Under the pieces are notes generated by a model. It saw only the letters and a program-made list of their open reading frames with translations. It was not told where the DNA came from and did not search any database. Shown here piece after piece: positions 23,151 to 27,136 of a stretch of 42,726 nucleotides of DNA. Source of the stretch: Flavobacteriales bacterium (GTDB taxonomy: Bacteria > Bacteroidota > Bacteroidia > Flavobacteriales > Flavobacteriaceae). Numbering within the stretch: position 1 is the first letter of the stretch; each line of letters opens with the position of its first letter. Both the position numbers and the translations under genes were made by a program. The stretch spans positions 1-42,726 of the forward strand of contig JAMOMQ010000072.1 in NCBI GenBank assembly GCA_027066995.1, given 5' to 3'.

Positions 23151-23393
23151 GGGCTTGCTGAAAAGCTCGGAAGCACAATAGATTTTTAATTTGTGAATTG
23201 CAGATGTATATAGATGCTTCAAAATGAACAAGTTGAAAATCTATTGTGCTTCCGAGCAGCAGAAATATTAAATTTACGCATTTTACAAGTGTAAGGAATT
23301 TTATACTTTTATGTGAAAAAATCATACATTTCTCATCGAACACCCGATTATATTATATTGAAATTCAACATTTAAGCGTTTTTCAGCAAGCCC
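23151..23393. mobile_element. Non-autonomous inverted-repeat element with TA duplication and internal hairpin
   Basis: The ends are perfect inverted repeats, TAGGGCTTGCTGAAAA (23149-23164) and TTTTCAGCAAGCCCTA (23380-23395). The outer TA on each side probably is a target duplication, leaving a 243-bp element. Inside, 23165-23186 and 23236-23257 are a perfect 22-bp inverted repeat around a 49-nt loop, directly next to the left end. There is no transposase; the overlapping minus-strand 65-codon frame is only a by-product. TA duplication is typical of IS630/Tc1-type transposition. The right end overlaps the stop codon of the DUF4177-like gene. It also fills most of the gap after prfC. Confidence 0.7.
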
Positions 23394-23854
23394 TATTGTA
23401 AGGGTCTTCTAAAAATATAACGGGTGATAAAAATACCTTTACCGTCCCCTTTACCGGCATCACTTTCTACACCGCTGGCCACAGTAAAAAGTTCCCATCC
23501 TTCTTTGGACATGTCGGTCAATTTTGATGAAACCAATGCATCATTAGAAGCAATATTTTGAAAATTAATACCCACCATAGAATAGAAGTTCAACAATTTG
23601 GTCTCGTTAAAACTTTTGATTTTTAAACTTTTTCTTTTGGTTTTGTTTTTCTTAAACTTGTTAGCTTCTTCACGAGTTGAGGTTGCTACTTTGTAATCCA
23701 TAGGCACATTGTGTTCCACTATACGCGAACGCCCGACTCCCATAGGCACAATAGATTCTACCGTAGTGATAATTTTGTATTCGTAGGCTTGCTGGGCAGC
23801 CATTTCAAATCCGAATAGCATAAAAGCTGTAATTAGAACAATAGTCTTTTTCAT
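23393..23854 (-). CDS. Secreted DUF4177-like protein
   Basis: A 153-residue exported protein. The signal peptide (MKKTIVLITAFMLFGFEMAA) is followed by AYEYKIITTVE at the mature N-terminus. The C-terminus has LTDMSKEGWELFTVASGV and a final YIFRRP, which is the DUF4177 pattern (YEYK... EGWEL... YIFKR). A basic, Lys-rich segment lies between. The function is unknown; the protein is probably periplasmic. The TAG stop shares its bases with the terminal repeat of the adjoining element, so the original C-terminus was probably slightly different. It is divergent from the sigma factor gene. Confidence 0.7.
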   Translation of the reverse strand: MKKTIVLITAFMLFGFEMAAQQAYEYKIITTVESIVPMGVGRSRIVEHNVPMDYKVATSTREEANKFKKNKTKRKSLKIKSFNETKLLNFYSMVGINFQNIASNDALVSSKLTDMSKEGWELFTVASGVESDAGKGDGKGIFITRYIFRRPLQ

Positions 23855-23889: not shown

Positions 23890-23963
23890 AGTAATTGTTT
23901 GTCAATTTAACTGTAACAAAACGATTTTTAAAGTATCTTTAAAATGAAAATGTTAGAACCCAA

Positions 23964-24521
23964 TTGGAAAGTCGAGAGGACATAACAGAATTGTTGGAGG
24001 CTTGCAAGCACCATGATCAAAAAGCGATGATGACAGTCTATCACAGATATGCCAAGGCTATGTATCATACAGCTTTGCGTATTGTGGGTGATAGTGACGA
24101 CGCCGAAGATGTCATGCAAGAAGCTTTTATCAAAGCCTTCGACAAATTGGATAGCTATAAGGCAACGGCAACTTTTGGCGCTTGGCTCAAACGAATTGTG
24201 GTTAATGAGAGCTTGTCTTGGTTGCGAAAACATAAAAATTTTGAATGTTTATCGGATAATTTAAAAGCTGTCGAACCGGAAACCGGTTTTGAAATAGATG
24301 AAAAAAACGTGAGGTTGGAAATACTTTTGGACACTATTAACCGACTTAAAGACAATTATAAATTAGCTTTTAATTTGTATTTTATTGAAGGTTATGATTA
24401 TGAAGAAATGATGGATATATTAAACTTGTCTTATGCCAATGTGCGCACTTTGGTGTCTCGGGCTAAACAACAATTAAAAGATATATTAAAAACAAATTAT
24501 CCGGAATATATAAAAAAATAA
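23964..24521 (+). CDS. ECF-type RNA polymerase sigma factor
   Basis: A 185-residue sigma-70 family (extracytoplasmic function) sigma factor. Region 2 is at about residues 24-90 (ALRIVGDSDDAEDVMQEAFI with the DAEDVMQE core, then FGAWLKRIVVNESLSWLRK). Region 4 is at 120-175 (AFNLYFIEGYDYEEMMDIL, then ANVRTLVSRAKQQLK as the -35 recognition helix). The start is uncertain: the only in-frame start before region 2 is a TTG at 23964; ATGs at 23944 and 23950 lie in another frame and stop after 14 codons. A near-consensus -7 box, TATCTTTA, lies at 23934-23941. It heads a four-gene operon with a membrane protein, a DUF4097-like protein and a barrel protein. Confidence 0.9.
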   Translation: MESREDITELLEACKHHDQKAMMTVYHRYAKAMYHTALRIVGDSDDAEDVMQEAFIKAFDKLDSYKATATFGAWLKRIVVNESLSWLRKHKNFECLSDNLKAVEPETGFEIDEKNVRLEILLDTINRLKDNYKLAFNLYFIEGYDYEEMMDILNLSYANVRTLVSRAKQQLKDILKTNYPEYIKK

Positions 24522-24524
24522 AAA

Positions 24525-25046
24525 ATGAAAATAAAGACATTTTTTGACAAAAACCGTTCAAATATTGATATTTATGACCTAAAACAAGGTCATGATGACC
24601 GGTTTTTGCAAAAATTACAGAAAAAACAGAAATCTAAAAAAGGTTTTGATTATAAAAAATATTTGGTGGCAGCCTCTCTATTGTTGTTATTTGGTCTGTT
24701 TTGGCAATACATGTCTTTTCAGTGGCAACAACAACAAATCAACCGGGAATTGATGCAAAACGAACAATATTTTTCCAATATTATTAAAGCCGAAATGCAA
24801 GCGGTAAAAGCGGAGGAAACACCGGAAACCAAAAAAGTATTTAATGATGCTCTACAACAAATTCAAATACTTGAAAAGGATTATCAAAAACTGGTTAACG
24901 ATTACAAAAACAATCCTGATAAATATATATTAAACGCCATGATTCAAAACTTTCAAAAACGTATAGATATTTTGCAAGATATTAAAATGCAAATCAAACA
25001 AATTAAAGACTCTAAAACCTATCAAAATGAAAAACATAGGGCTTAA
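24525..25046 (+). CDS. Membrane-anchored putative anti-sigma factor
   Basis: A 173-residue protein with one transmembrane helix at about residues 47-65 (LVAASLLLLFGLFWQYMSF). The cytoplasmic part contains YDLKQGHDDRFLQKLQKKQ; a short GHxxRF..KL-type motif just before the helix is common in Bacteroidota anti-sigma factors next to ECF sigma genes. The periplasmic part is Gln/Lys-rich and helical, probably a coiled coil (NDALQQIQILEKDYQKLVND). The gene starts 3 bp after the sigma factor and overlaps the next gene by 20 bp. Role as the sigma regulator is inferred from position, membrane anchoring and that motif. Confidence 0.7.
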   Translation: MKIKTFFDKNRSNIDIYDLKQGHDDRFLQKLQKKQKSKKGFDYKKYLVAASLLLLFGLFWQYMSFQWQQQQINRELMQNEQYFSNIIKAEMQAVKAEETPETKKVFNDALQQIQILEKDYQKLVNDYKNNPDKYILNAMIQNFQKRIDILQDIKMQIKQIKDSKTYQNEKHRA

Positions 25047-26106
25047 CATATTATTAATTTTATTGCCGTTTTTGGTATTTGCAAATCGTCCCCAAGGGGC
25101 TATTAAGAAAACCAAAGTGATACAACGCCGGTTTGAAGCCGGGGCTGCCGGTCAGGTTTATATTGACAATATGTATGGTAATATCCATGTGATAACCGGC
25201 ACGCAATCTCATGTGAGTATTACTGTAGAAATATCGGTTGACGGCGATTCTAACGAGGCGGTTCAAAAAACTTTTGAACGTATTGATGTCAATATCATTA
25301 AACAAGGCAGTCAAATTACCGGCAAAACCCTGGTGCAAAGCAAGCGGCAATCATGGAATCTTTTCTCTTTGGTTTTTGGCAGTAGTTCAAACAACACCAA
25401 TTTTAAAATCAATTACACAATTAAAATGCCCGAGCAATGGGATTTGAAAATCAATAATGATTACGGGCATATATTTATCAACCGCTTGACAGGTGATTTG
25501 GATTTAAATGCCGACTACGGTCACTTTGAAATCGGGCAATTACTCGGCTCACACAACCGGATTAATATCGATTATTTTTCAAAATCGGGTATTGAGTTTG
25601 TCAAACAAGCCACAATCAATGCCGATTATAGCAAAATTAGTATTGATATGGCTTACCGGTTAAATTTGAATTGTGATTATACCACCGTAAAAATAGGTAA
25701 TGTCCGCCAATTACATTTTAATAACGATTACGGCAGCCTGCATGTAGATAATGTTAAAGAGGTCAACGGTTCGGGCGACGGTCAAGCACGCTATTTCGGA
25801 CAAGTGCATAGTCTGCGGTTTAGTGGCGACTACGGATCGGTTACTATAGATGGTCTATTGCCCGGTTTTGACCGGATTGATTTGGAATGTGACTATACCA
25901 CCATTAAGATTTATAACCGAAAAAAAGTGCCTTACCGTTTGAATATTTTACAAGAATACGGTTGTTTTAAATACGAAAACCTGACCGTATACAGAGAAGT
26001 GATTGATGGCGGCGATAAAGATATCAAAGCTTTTTATTTAGACCGGAACAGTTCTTCTACTATTGATATTACCGAGGATTATGGCTGTATTAAAATATAT
26101 AATTAA
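25027..26106 (+). CDS. Secreted DUF4097-like beta-helix protein
   Basis: A 359-residue protein with a signal peptide (MKNIGLNILLILLPFLVFA). The mature part is a series of short repeats built on DYG: NNDYGHIFI, NADYGHFEI, NADYSKISI, NCDYTTVKI, NNDYGSLHV, SGDYGSVTI, ECDYTTIKI and TEDYGCIKI, one every ~20-25 residues. That is the beta-helix pattern of DUF4097-type putative adhesins, often encoded with ECF sigma operons in Bacteroidota. The location is probably periplasmic or cell-surface. It overlaps the preceding gene by 20 bp. No catalytic residues are evident. Confidence 0.8.
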   Translation: MKNIGLNILLILLPFLVFANRPQGAIKKTKVIQRRFEAGAAGQVYIDNMYGNIHVITGTQSHVSITVEISVDGDSNEAVQKTFERIDVNIIKQGSQITGKTLVQSKRQSWNLFSLVFGSSSNNTNFKINYTIKMPEQWDLKINNDYGHIFINRLTGDLDLNADYGHFEIGQLLGSHNRINIDYFSKSGIEFVKQATINADYSKISIDMAYRLNLNCDYTTVKIGNVRQLHFNNDYGSLHVDNVKEVNGSGDGQARYFGQVHSLRFSGDYGSVTIDGLLPGFDRIDLECDYTTIKIYNRKKVPYRLNILQEYGCFKYENLTVYREVIDGGDKDIKAFYLDRNSSSTIDITEDYGCIKIYN

Positions 26107-26128
26107 CCGCATTTGTAAATATAAGAAT

Positions 26129-27136
26129 ATGAAAACACGATTTTTTTTGATTATCATAAGTATTTTATGGAACTATCATAGCATACTGGCCCAATCGGCT
26201 ATTGACCGGCAACTTTTACAAATCAACCGGCAAATTGACAGTATCATCAAAGTGAAAGTCACCGATTTTAAGCAACAGCTGAAAGATATTAACCGGCGTT
26301 TGGCACAAAAAGTCATTGACCGGCAACAGGCCGAAGCCGAAAAAAAGGAACTGGCCAAGCGTTATGCCGAAGATTTGGACTATACCGTTTTTAAATTGAC
26401 CAACGACTTAAAACGTGCCGGCAAAGGTCAATATATTATGGACAGTGTGTCGGCAGCCCCTTCAACTACCGCTTATAATGTGCGTAAAGTTATTATGTAT
26501 CGCAAGCATTATTATGATAAAAAGGTGCATAAAAACAAACAAACATTTGCGTATTTGTTTGTCTCGGCAGGATTTAATAATCTTATTGACAACGATCAAG
26601 TGCAAAGTCTCGAATTTAGCCCTTACGGTTATTTGCAATCCCGATTTTTTGAATTGGGCATTGATTGGAAAACCAATATTATACATCAAAAAGTATTTGT
26701 GAATTACGGCGCGTCTTTTATATGGCATACCCTCAAACCAACCGATAACAAATTCCATGTTATTGACAATAACCAAGTGGTTCTGGTAACGCATCCTTAC
26801 GATTTGGAAACATCAAAACTGCGTCATATTTGGCTGCGATTACCTTTGCAACTCGAACTCAATTTTCCTAATGCCAATCGTGGTCATTTGCATTTGACCG
26901 GAGGTTTTTACGGTAAGTTTCGTTTGACTACCAAACAAAAATTGACTTATGTAGCCGGTAATGACAATCATGATGAGGTTATAAAAAACAGTTATTTGAT
27001 GCCGAGCTTTGCCTATGGCATATCAGGTGGTTTTGGCGGTTCCGATTGGGAGATTTTTGCACAGTATGATATAACGCCACTATTTAAATACAGTCAAAAA
27101 CATTTGGTAAGTTTGGGCTTTAAATGGCGATTGTAA
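26129..27136 (+). CDS. Outer-membrane beta-barrel protein with coiled-coil N-terminus
   Basis: A 335-residue exported protein. I start it at the ATG at 26129 (MKTRFFLIIISIL), which begins a signal peptide ending near ILAQS; the longer frame from 26063 only reads the preceding gene out of phase. Residues ~25-100 are a charged coiled coil (INRQIDSIIKVKVTDFKQQL; DRQQAEAEKKELAKRYAED). From about 150 onward, alternating strands such as YLQSRFFELGIDWKTN, LRLPLQLELNF, HLHLTGGFYGKFRL and a terminal LVSLGFKWRL, ending in an aromatic/basic strand, look like an 8-strand barrel of the PorT-like type. It is the last gene of the sigma operon. Confidence 0.7.
   Translation: MKTRFFLIIISILWNYHSILAQSAIDRQLLQINRQIDSIIKVKVTDFKQQLKDINRRLAQKVIDRQQAEAEKKELAKRYAEDLDYTVFKLTNDLKRAGKGQYIMDSVSAAPSTTAYNVRKVIMYRKHYYDKKVHKNKQTFAYLFVSAGFNNLIDNDQVQSLEFSPYGYLQSRFFELGIDWKTNIIHQKVFVNYGASFIWHTLKPTDNKFHVIDNNQVVLVTHPYDLETSKLRHIWLRLPLQLELNFPNANRGHLHLTGGFYGKFRLTTKQKLTYVAGNDNHDEVIKNSYLMPSFAYGISGGFGGSDWEIFAQYDITPLFKYSQKHLVSLGFKWRL

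What the first reader, a model, noticed from the sequence alone, without database searches (positions are those of the whole stretch)
23964..27136. Sigma, anti-sigma, beta-helix and barrel operon
An ECF sigma factor, a single-helix membrane protein with an anti-sigma-like motif, an exported DYG-repeat beta-helix protein and an outer-membrane barrel overlap or lie within a few bases of each other. This is a likely complete envelope signalling unit, with the beta-helix and barrel as either sensors or outputs. Their function has not been described as far as I know.
Basis: partly seen in the sequence, partly recalled or inferred. Interest (0 to 1): 0.5.

Follow-up and report, generated by a model that had tools for sequence, protein, structure and literature searches.

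The report
Self-regulating sigma operon making beta-helix proteins
A bacterial gene switch and its membrane-bound brake share one operon with an exported ladder-shaped protein and an outer-membrane protein, and promoter patterns suggest the switch turns on itself and other ladder-shaped envelope proteins, a widespread arrangement that seems not to have been described.

Summary
The four-gene unit at 23964-27136 is real: an ECF sigma factor, a single-pass membrane protein with a ~44-residue cytosolic end, an exported beta-helix with the Toastrack/DUF2807 fold, and a probable outer-membrane barrel. Genes 1-3 are a fixed module (38 of 39 relative loci, 78 of 80 further loci; the exceptions are cut by contig ends) that reaches Parabacteroides.

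New here: (i) an ECF-type promoter, TGTAACA-N16-ATCTTTA, ends 22 bp before gene 1; it is found within 2 mismatches in 76 of 78 further loci (controls 0-4 of 78), so the operon is probably autoregulated; (ii) gene 2's cytosolic end belongs to an uncatalogued family found beside ECF sigma genes, and is probably the anti-sigma; (iii) the usual next gene, a DUF2807 beta-helix, is missing here but lies elsewhere in the genome behind a promoter-like site; (iv) in the family the same promoter precedes units with other DUF2807 genes at 7 of 27 non-sigma sites.

The beta-helix proteins are best read as outputs; the barrel is a genus-level addition. Not shown: sigma binding, promoter use, signal, function. 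Three of 12 same-genus genomes gave no match to the operon. Verdict: a new variant of a known kind, moderately interesting.

The parts
23912..23941 (+). predicted ECF promoter TGTAACA-N16-ATCTTTA (probable autoregulation)
   Evidence: Exact match, the only exact one in the own genome; conserved within 2 mismatches upstream of sigma in 76 of 78 named-genome loci and 23 of 29 first-set loci of this type
23964..24521 (+). ECF sigma factor (185 aa)
   Evidence: Pfam Sigma70_r2 and Sigma70_r4_2 over cut-off; TIGR02937 88.1 bits, cut-off 42.9
24525..25046 (+). probable single-pass anti-sigma factor (173 aa)
   Evidence: Adjacent to sigma in 38 of 39 loci; alignment of 39 homologues; class-wide profile search and neighbours
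24525..24656 (+). cytosolic sigma-binding segment, residues 1-44 (inferred)
   Evidence: Consensus motif FD...P..GH..RF..KL; model pLDDT 88-98 up to residue 33 and about 75 after it
24657..24710 (+). membrane helix, residues 45-62
   Evidence: Kyte-Doolittle windows
25027..26106 (+). exported beta-helix protein of Toastrack/DUF2807 fold (359 aa)
   Evidence: AlphaFold and PDB fold matches
26129..27136 (+). probable outer-membrane barrel with long N-terminal helix-like region (335 aa), genus-specific member
   Evidence: PF13568 below cut-off; orthologues 46-63% identical in 6 same-genus loci

Best explanation
An autoregulated envelope-response unit. At rest the cytosolic end of gene 2 holds the ECF sigma factor at the inner membrane. 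An unidentified envelope signal, received by the helical periplasmic part of gene 2, releases sigma. Sigma then transcribes its own operon from TGTAACA-N16-ATCTTTA and a small set of other genes, prominently further exported DUF2807 beta-helix proteins, so the output is mainly ladder-like beta-helix proteins outside the cytoplasm. In this genus a barrel is co-made, and a 417-aa exported protein encoded elsewhere is a further target. Shown by sequence: gene order, promoter conservation, predicted folds, recurrence of the promoter before DUF2807 genes. Inferred: sigma binding by gene 2, promoter use, direction of control, signal release. Unknown: the signal and what the beta-helix proteins do.
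For: Module in 38 of 39 and 78 of 80 loci. Promoter in 76 of 78 with controls of 1, 0, 0 and 4 of 78 and 3 of 390. 60 exact sites against 7 reversed-pattern controls in 120 family genomes, 33 before the sigma gene; 7 of the 27 others lead units holding a DUF2807 gene. Own-genome DUF2807 orthologue behind a 2-mismatch site. 417-aa target: 8 of 8 genus homologues. Gene-2 profile: sigma next door in 16 of 16 strong and 11 of 13 weaker loci examined, two of the latter with RskA_C or FecR domains. Fused model close to SigW of SigW-RsiW and CnrH of CnrH-CnrY.
Against: No binding or expression data. Free SigG1 also matches the compact sigma shape (7qh5, Z 13.4), and RseA- and MucA-bound sigmas match poorly (rmsd 14-20), so the shape is weak proof. 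In the own genome, 2-mismatch sites (62) are only 1.5 times the control (42). Promoter missed or weak in 6 of 29 first-set loci of this type. The 417-aa homologues outside the genus lack the promoter, 4 of 4. Genome G007 has the 417-aa gene with an exact promoter but no operon was found in it. G001, G007 and G010 gave no gene-3 match.
Confidence: 0.6

Rival explanations
1. The beta-helix (and here the barrel) are part of the sensor: the beta-helix docks on the periplasmic helices of gene 2, and its loss or displacement during envelope damage frees sigma, so it is both product and negative-feedback sensor.
For: Gene 3 always directly follows gene 2 in loci that show both and overlaps it here, whereas the DUF2807 gene can leave the operon. 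Autoregulated sensors are common in ECF systems (recalled).
Against: Loci were found through gene 3, so its constancy is partly built in; one of 16 strong gene-2 loci shows no gene 3 in the stretch held (L391). No interaction was modelled. Many other sigma targets of the same fold look like plain outputs.
Confidence: 0.25
2. Sigma and gene 2 are a pair, but the downstream genes are merely co-transcribed cargo, for example surface adhesins, with no tie to sensing or envelope stress.
For: A DUF2807 protein of Porphyromonas gingivalis is reported as an adhesin (PMC10949514, passages). The fourth gene varies between lineages: DUF2807, small barrel or the window's barrel.
Against: Gene 3 stays with the pair into other orders; the same promoter recurs before dispersed DUF2807 genes, which argues for a purpose, though an adhesive output would fit that too.
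Confidence: 0.3
3. Gene 2 is not an anti-sigma factor; sigma is controlled at the level of its own transcription or by another protein.
For: No known anti-sigma Pfam or NCBIfam model is reached by gene 2; no zinc Hx3Cx2C motif.
Against: N-terminus conserved and recurring beside ECF sigma genes in proteins with different outer domains; model contact and sigma shape.
Confidence: 0.08

Closest known systems
Dma/Das of Bacteroides thetaiotaomicron (ECF21 sigma with dual membrane-spanning anti-sigma; PMC13088901, passages seen)
   Same: Bacteroidota ECF sigma with an adjacent anti-sigma that has a short N-terminal sigma-binding part and one membrane helix; outer-membrane barrel involved; own operon among the most induced genes in the dma2 mutant
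   Different: In Dma the barrel is the C-terminus of the anti-sigma itself, behind a disordered tether; here anti-sigma, beta-helix and barrel are separate genes, and most relatives lack this barrel
CnrYXH and SigW/RsiW type sigma-anti-sigma pairs
   Same: Modelled sigma is closest to SigW of SigW-RsiW (TMt 0.73) and among the closest to CnrH of CnrH-CnrY (TMt 0.66); short two-helix cytosolic segment as recalled for CnrY
   Different: No sequence match of gene 2 to either family; periplasmic part is a different, helical domain; two exported beta-helix proteins in the usual operon
Toastrack proteins and the PSP/Lia systems (PMC11237479, passages and section 27)
   Same: Beta-helix fold unifying DUF4097, DUF2154 and DUF2807; that paper mentions an operonically linked sigma factor in passing
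   Different: No PspA in the 13 genus genomes; the beta-helix here has an export signal, whereas the paper predicts Toastrack to be intracellular
DUF2807 putative adhesins (PGN_1547 of Porphyromonas gingivalis, PMC10949514, passages; PDB 3ljy, 3pet, 4opw)
   Same: Fold of gene 3 and family of the usual following gene
   Different: Gene 3 reaches no Pfam cut-off; the passages seen describe no sigma factor for PGN_1547 and say that it has its own promoter

Membership tests
ECF sigma factor | Sigma-70 regions 2 and 4 only, over curated cut-offs | tested here: met
   Sigma70_r2 62.5 (24) and Sigma70_r4_2 41.9 (25.7) bits, 185 aa
Anti-sigma factor (any class) | Binds and inhibits the cognate sigma | not testable with these tools
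   Only indirect: gene order and fused model
Class I zinc-binding anti-sigma domain | Hx3Cx2C motif (PMC7406223, passages) | tested here: not met
   No cysteine in gene 2
Class II (CnrY-like) anti-sigma | Short helical segment wrapping sigma (recalled) | tested here: inconclusive
   Helices at gene-2 residues 3-9, 11-14 and 23-37 in the model; sigma shape near CnrH; CnrY itself was not compared
Dma dual membrane-spanning anti-sigma | C-terminal barrel in the same polypeptide (PMC13088901, passages) | tested here: not met
   Gene 2 ends after a helical periplasmic part; barrel is a separate gene
FecI/FecR | FecR domain in the anti-sigma | tested here: not met
   No FecR match to gene 2 at E up to 1
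[quoted passage not shown]
   Model matches 3ljy, 4opw and 3pet at Z 16.0, 15.8, 14.4 and 4qrk at 11.3; fold of a predicted model only
Pfam DUF2807, DUF4097 or DUF2154 (gene 3) | Score over the family cut-off | tested here: not met
   Best related match Toast_rack_N 14.8 bits, cut-off 22
PSP system | PspA/IM30 present | tested here: not met
   0 of 13 genus genomes match PF04012

The most novel reading that the evidence does not exclude
The unit is a split, trans-envelope version of the Dma design: outer-membrane barrel with a periplasmic helical region, beta-helix ladder, and inner-membrane anti-sigma with periplasmic helices form a chain across the periplasm that reports envelope integrity to a sigma factor whose regulon is largely devoted to making exported Toastrack ladders. 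This would be a Bacteroidia-wide envelope response built on extracytoplasmic Toastracks and independent of PspA.
Probability: 0.15. Interest if true: 0.72.

Novelty: new variant of a known kind. Interest (0 to 1): 0.52.

Why it matters
It gives a probable regulator, and a readable promoter motif, to exported DUF2807-type beta-helix proteins, which are common in these bacteria (3 to 14 matches in each of 22 genomes) and otherwise known mainly as putative adhesins. It points to an uncatalogued anti-sigma family. It bears on the published prediction that Toastrack domains are intracellular, since the ones here start with export signals. In the window genome the DUF2807 gene is outside the operon yet sits behind a promoter-like site, a natural test of co-regulation.

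Tried and rejected
Barrel kinship: the window's barrel family and the small barrel of the second operon copies (L066-L071) are not shown to be homologous; hhalign aligned 30 columns of the signal-peptide region, probability 15. Sequence kinship of gene 3 with DUF2807 proteins: hhalign probability 42, not convincing; the link rests on folds. PDB sequence search with gene 3: 0 matches. Genome-wide regulon in the own genome: 62 sites at up to 2 mismatches against 42 control; of the 30 given loci many lie inside long open frames, so only sites backed by relatives are used. A TonB-type receptor gene at C67 (2 mismatches, 22 bp before its start) was not followed up. Extension of the 417-aa target outside the genus failed, 4 of 4; two short G007 fragments listed were not examined. 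Of the gene-2 profile matches only those with loci (30, window included) could be examined; 29 were. In one search five DUF2807 rows start at a contig edge and gave no upstream test, and the two G012 rows returned the same gene, so 9 in-operon rows are 8 genes. The window row of the first upstream listing came out blank; the window's site was read and confirmed. The first alignment of the sigma/gene-2 fusion misplaced gene-2 rows and was discarded; five loci were left out when testing its replacement.
Full report
The observation. Four genes on the + strand at 23964-27136 encode an ECF sigma factor, a 173-aa single-pass membrane protein, a 359-aa exported repeat protein and a 335-aa probable outer-membrane barrel, spaced +3, -20 and +22 bp. 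The sigma factor is certain (Pfam regions 2 and 4 over cut-off). Genes 2 and 3 reach no Pfam or NCBIfam cut-off; the barrel is a sub-threshold match (17.7 bits, cut-off 27). The window is contig C72 of a 2.3-Mb, 187-contig genome. Its family is taken to be Flavobacteriaceae because same-family genome G036 has a contig of exactly the length of record QXCW01000002.1, Flavobacteriaceae bacterium MAR_2010_72, with an identical gene 3.

The module. Searching 60 genomes (the window's included) with gene 3 gave matches in 33; of the 12 same-genus relatives G001, G007 and G010 gave none, nor a close sigma match. I took 39 loci. Sigma, gene 2 and gene 3 stand in the same order in 38 of 39, the last being a contig fragment. 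A DUF2807 (PF10988) gene lies downstream in 33 of 39. The window's barrel is in 6 of 39, all same-genus, after the DUF2807 gene; in the window there is no room for a DUF2807 gene between gene 3 and the barrel. Six second-copy operons (L066-L071) carry a different small barrel after gene 3, 6 of 6, and then a DUF2807 gene of the same cluster in 5 of 6. Genera include Psychroserpens, Lacinutrix, Gelidibacter, Formosa, Winogradskyella, Algibacter and Bizionia. In a Parabacteroides distasonis record the three genes are also adjacent, annotated as sigma factor, hypothetical, hypothetical, and score 176, 55 and 229 bits against the three profiles.

The promoter. Upstream sequences share TGTAACA-N16-ATCTTTA; in the window it is exact, at 23912-23941. 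In the 78 named-genome loci with sigma it occurs within 2 mismatches in 76 (27 exact, 39 with one, 10 with two). Controls on the same stretches at up to 2 mismatches: reversed motif 1 of 78, antisense 0 of 78, spacer 15 0 of 78, spacer 17 4 of 78, shuffled motifs 3 of 390. In the first set, 23 of 29 loci of this type have it within 2 mismatches; the other 6 have 3-5, at least two for plain reasons seen by eye (a 17-bp spacer in L048, an over-long ORF start in L058). Three more distant loci (L072-L074) have 4-5. The six second-copy operons have instead TGCAACC-N15-TGTC, 6 of 6, so the two copies seem to use different promoters. The F. psychrophilum start-site study describes an ECF-type class with a CGT box at -10 (PMC9723704, passages), a different element. 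An element so fixed before the sigma gene is best explained by autoregulation; its use is not shown.

The regulon. In 120 family genomes, window included, the exact 14-base element occurs 60 times in 45 genomes, the reversed pattern 7 times. I fetched 56; the other 4 are sigma promoters already seen. The sigma gene follows in 29 of 56, so 33 of 60. Of the 27 others, 21 are intergenic and 6 lie inside an ORF. Five directly precede a DUF2807 gene. In two more (G120, G097) a DUF2807 gene is the second gene of the unit by coordinates: 7 of 27. With about 6 DUF2807 matches per genome (134 in 22 genomes; the script used 133; some genes count twice) and an assumed 3200 genes per genome, about 0.1 is expected (Poisson P about 2e-11). 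The family was picked after seeing the hits, so this is only a guide. Three sites precede DUF5694 lipoproteins and two precede beta-lactamase-fold hydrolases; the others are single cases.

In the own genome the DUF2807 gene most like the operon copies lies after trpA, split over contigs C36 and C35, with a 2-mismatch element 45 bp before its start. The 9 in-operon rows (8 genes) have 3-5 mismatches and 16 other DUF2807 genes with a testable upstream have 3-6. At the genome-wide rate of such sites (62 in both strands) about 0.002 would be expected there. A 417-aa exported protein (C33:4199-5452, no Pfam match) has the element within 2 mismatches before 8 of 8 genus homologues and 0 of 4 outside. 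Against this: in the own genome 62 sites face 42 in the control; and G007 has the 417-aa gene with an exact element although no sigma operon was found in it. That genome is in some 400 contigs, and a DUF2807 gene of the operon type starts at the edge of what was held, so a gap is possible but not shown.

The anti-sigma. Gene 2 has a conserved cytosolic consensus (FD...P..GH..RF..KL), one membrane helix and a helical periplasmic part. In 149 class-level genomes its profile matches 42. Of the 29 loci examined, the 16 strong ones have sigma next door in 16 and gene 3 in 15; the 13 weaker ones, mostly matching only the cytosolic and membrane part, have sigma next door in 11. Among the latter the outer domains differ: VWA (L395), trypsin (L400), RskA_C (L401), PKD/SprB/CHU_C (L403), FecR (L406). 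RskA and FecR are established sigma regulators (recalled). Some weak matches may rest on the membrane helix alone. A model of sigma fused to gene 2 (60-row alignment, stop read as glycine) has pLDDT 90.5 and pTM 0.64. Gene-2 residues 1-33 lie at 88-98; the next ten are near 75. The only two strands in the model are in sigma's inter-domain linker (110-111) and at gene-2 residues 1-2 (188-189), and so must pair; no coordinates or PAE were available. Foldseek puts SigW of SigW-RsiW (TMt 0.70-0.73), RpoE of RpoE-NepR and CnrH of CnrH-CnrY (0.66 each) well above RNA-polymerase-bound ECF sigmas (0.31-0.41, rmsd 22-28), but RseA- and MucA-bound sigmas are also low (0.44-0.49, rmsd 14-20). VIA-align: SigW Z 15.0 (rmsd 3.3, 151 aligned), CnrH Z 12.5 (4.3, 150), and free SigG1 Z 13.4 (3.7, 151). 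The compact shape therefore supports but does not prove binding.

The beta-helix. The gene 3 model (pLDDT 90.6, pTM 0.84) matches the DUF2807 structures 3ljy, 4opw and 3pet at Z 16.0, 15.8 and 14.4, two other Parabacteroides proteins, 3jx8 and 3lyc, at 16.5 and 16.4, and a chain of the Legionella Dot/Icm complex (7muc_AM) at 16.9, tied with them. DUF2807 belongs to the Toastrack class of PMC11237479 (passages and section 27). That paper predicts Toastrack to be intracellular; gene 3 and the DUF2807 genes here begin with signal-peptide-like ends (hydropathy for gene 3; by eye for the others). PspA is absent from 13 of 13 genus genomes, so this is no classical PSP operon.

Interpretation. The best reading is an autoregulated ECF unit whose brake is gene 2 and whose products are extracytoplasmic beta-helix proteins, with lineage-specific barrels. 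The nearest described design seen is Dma/Das of Bacteroides (PMC13088901, passages), in which the barrel is fused to the anti-sigma; membership fails on that feature, while working alike remains possible. PMC12596196 and PMC13114119 (passages) describe other Bacteroidales sigma pairs. Searches listed no paper that I could recognise as about this operon; the Dma1 paper PMC10927553 is not held.

Verdict. A real, conserved, apparently undescribed variant of a known kind: well supported as a unit, moderately in mechanism, open as to signal and function.

Noticed in passing
L066-L071: Six larger family genomes carry a second sigma-gene 2-gene 3 operon with a different small barrel and a different promoter element, TGCAACC-N15-TGTC, 6 of 6: a possible natural pair of insulated signalling copies.
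   Followed up: partly
L403 247-1737 (-); L395 1501-3261 (+); L400 841-1938 (-): Proteins encoded beside ECF sigma genes that match the N-terminal part of the gene-2 profile carry PKD/SprB/CHU_C, VWA or trypsin-like domains.
   Followed up: partly
G000 contig C33:4199-5452 (L141): 417-aa exported protein with no Pfam match, predicted member of the regulon in this genus.
   Followed up: partly
L330, L348, L358: The same sigma-type promoter precedes DUF5694 lipoproteins in three family genomes, a possible further shared target.
   Followed up: partly
G000 contigs C35, C36, C51, C186 (ends): Four of the five DUF2807 matches in the own genome lie at contig ends, as if assembly broke inside these repeat proteins.
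   Followed up: no
window 23393-23854 (-): Divergent 153-aa exported gene (weak DUF4177 resemblance) shares the promoter region and is conserved beside the operon in 4 of 39 loci.
   Followed up: no
L407 (NZ_OY725768.1): A 388-kb Parabacteroides distasonis record labelled plasmid carries lpxB and surE beside the module, so it may be chromosomal sequence.
   Followed up: no
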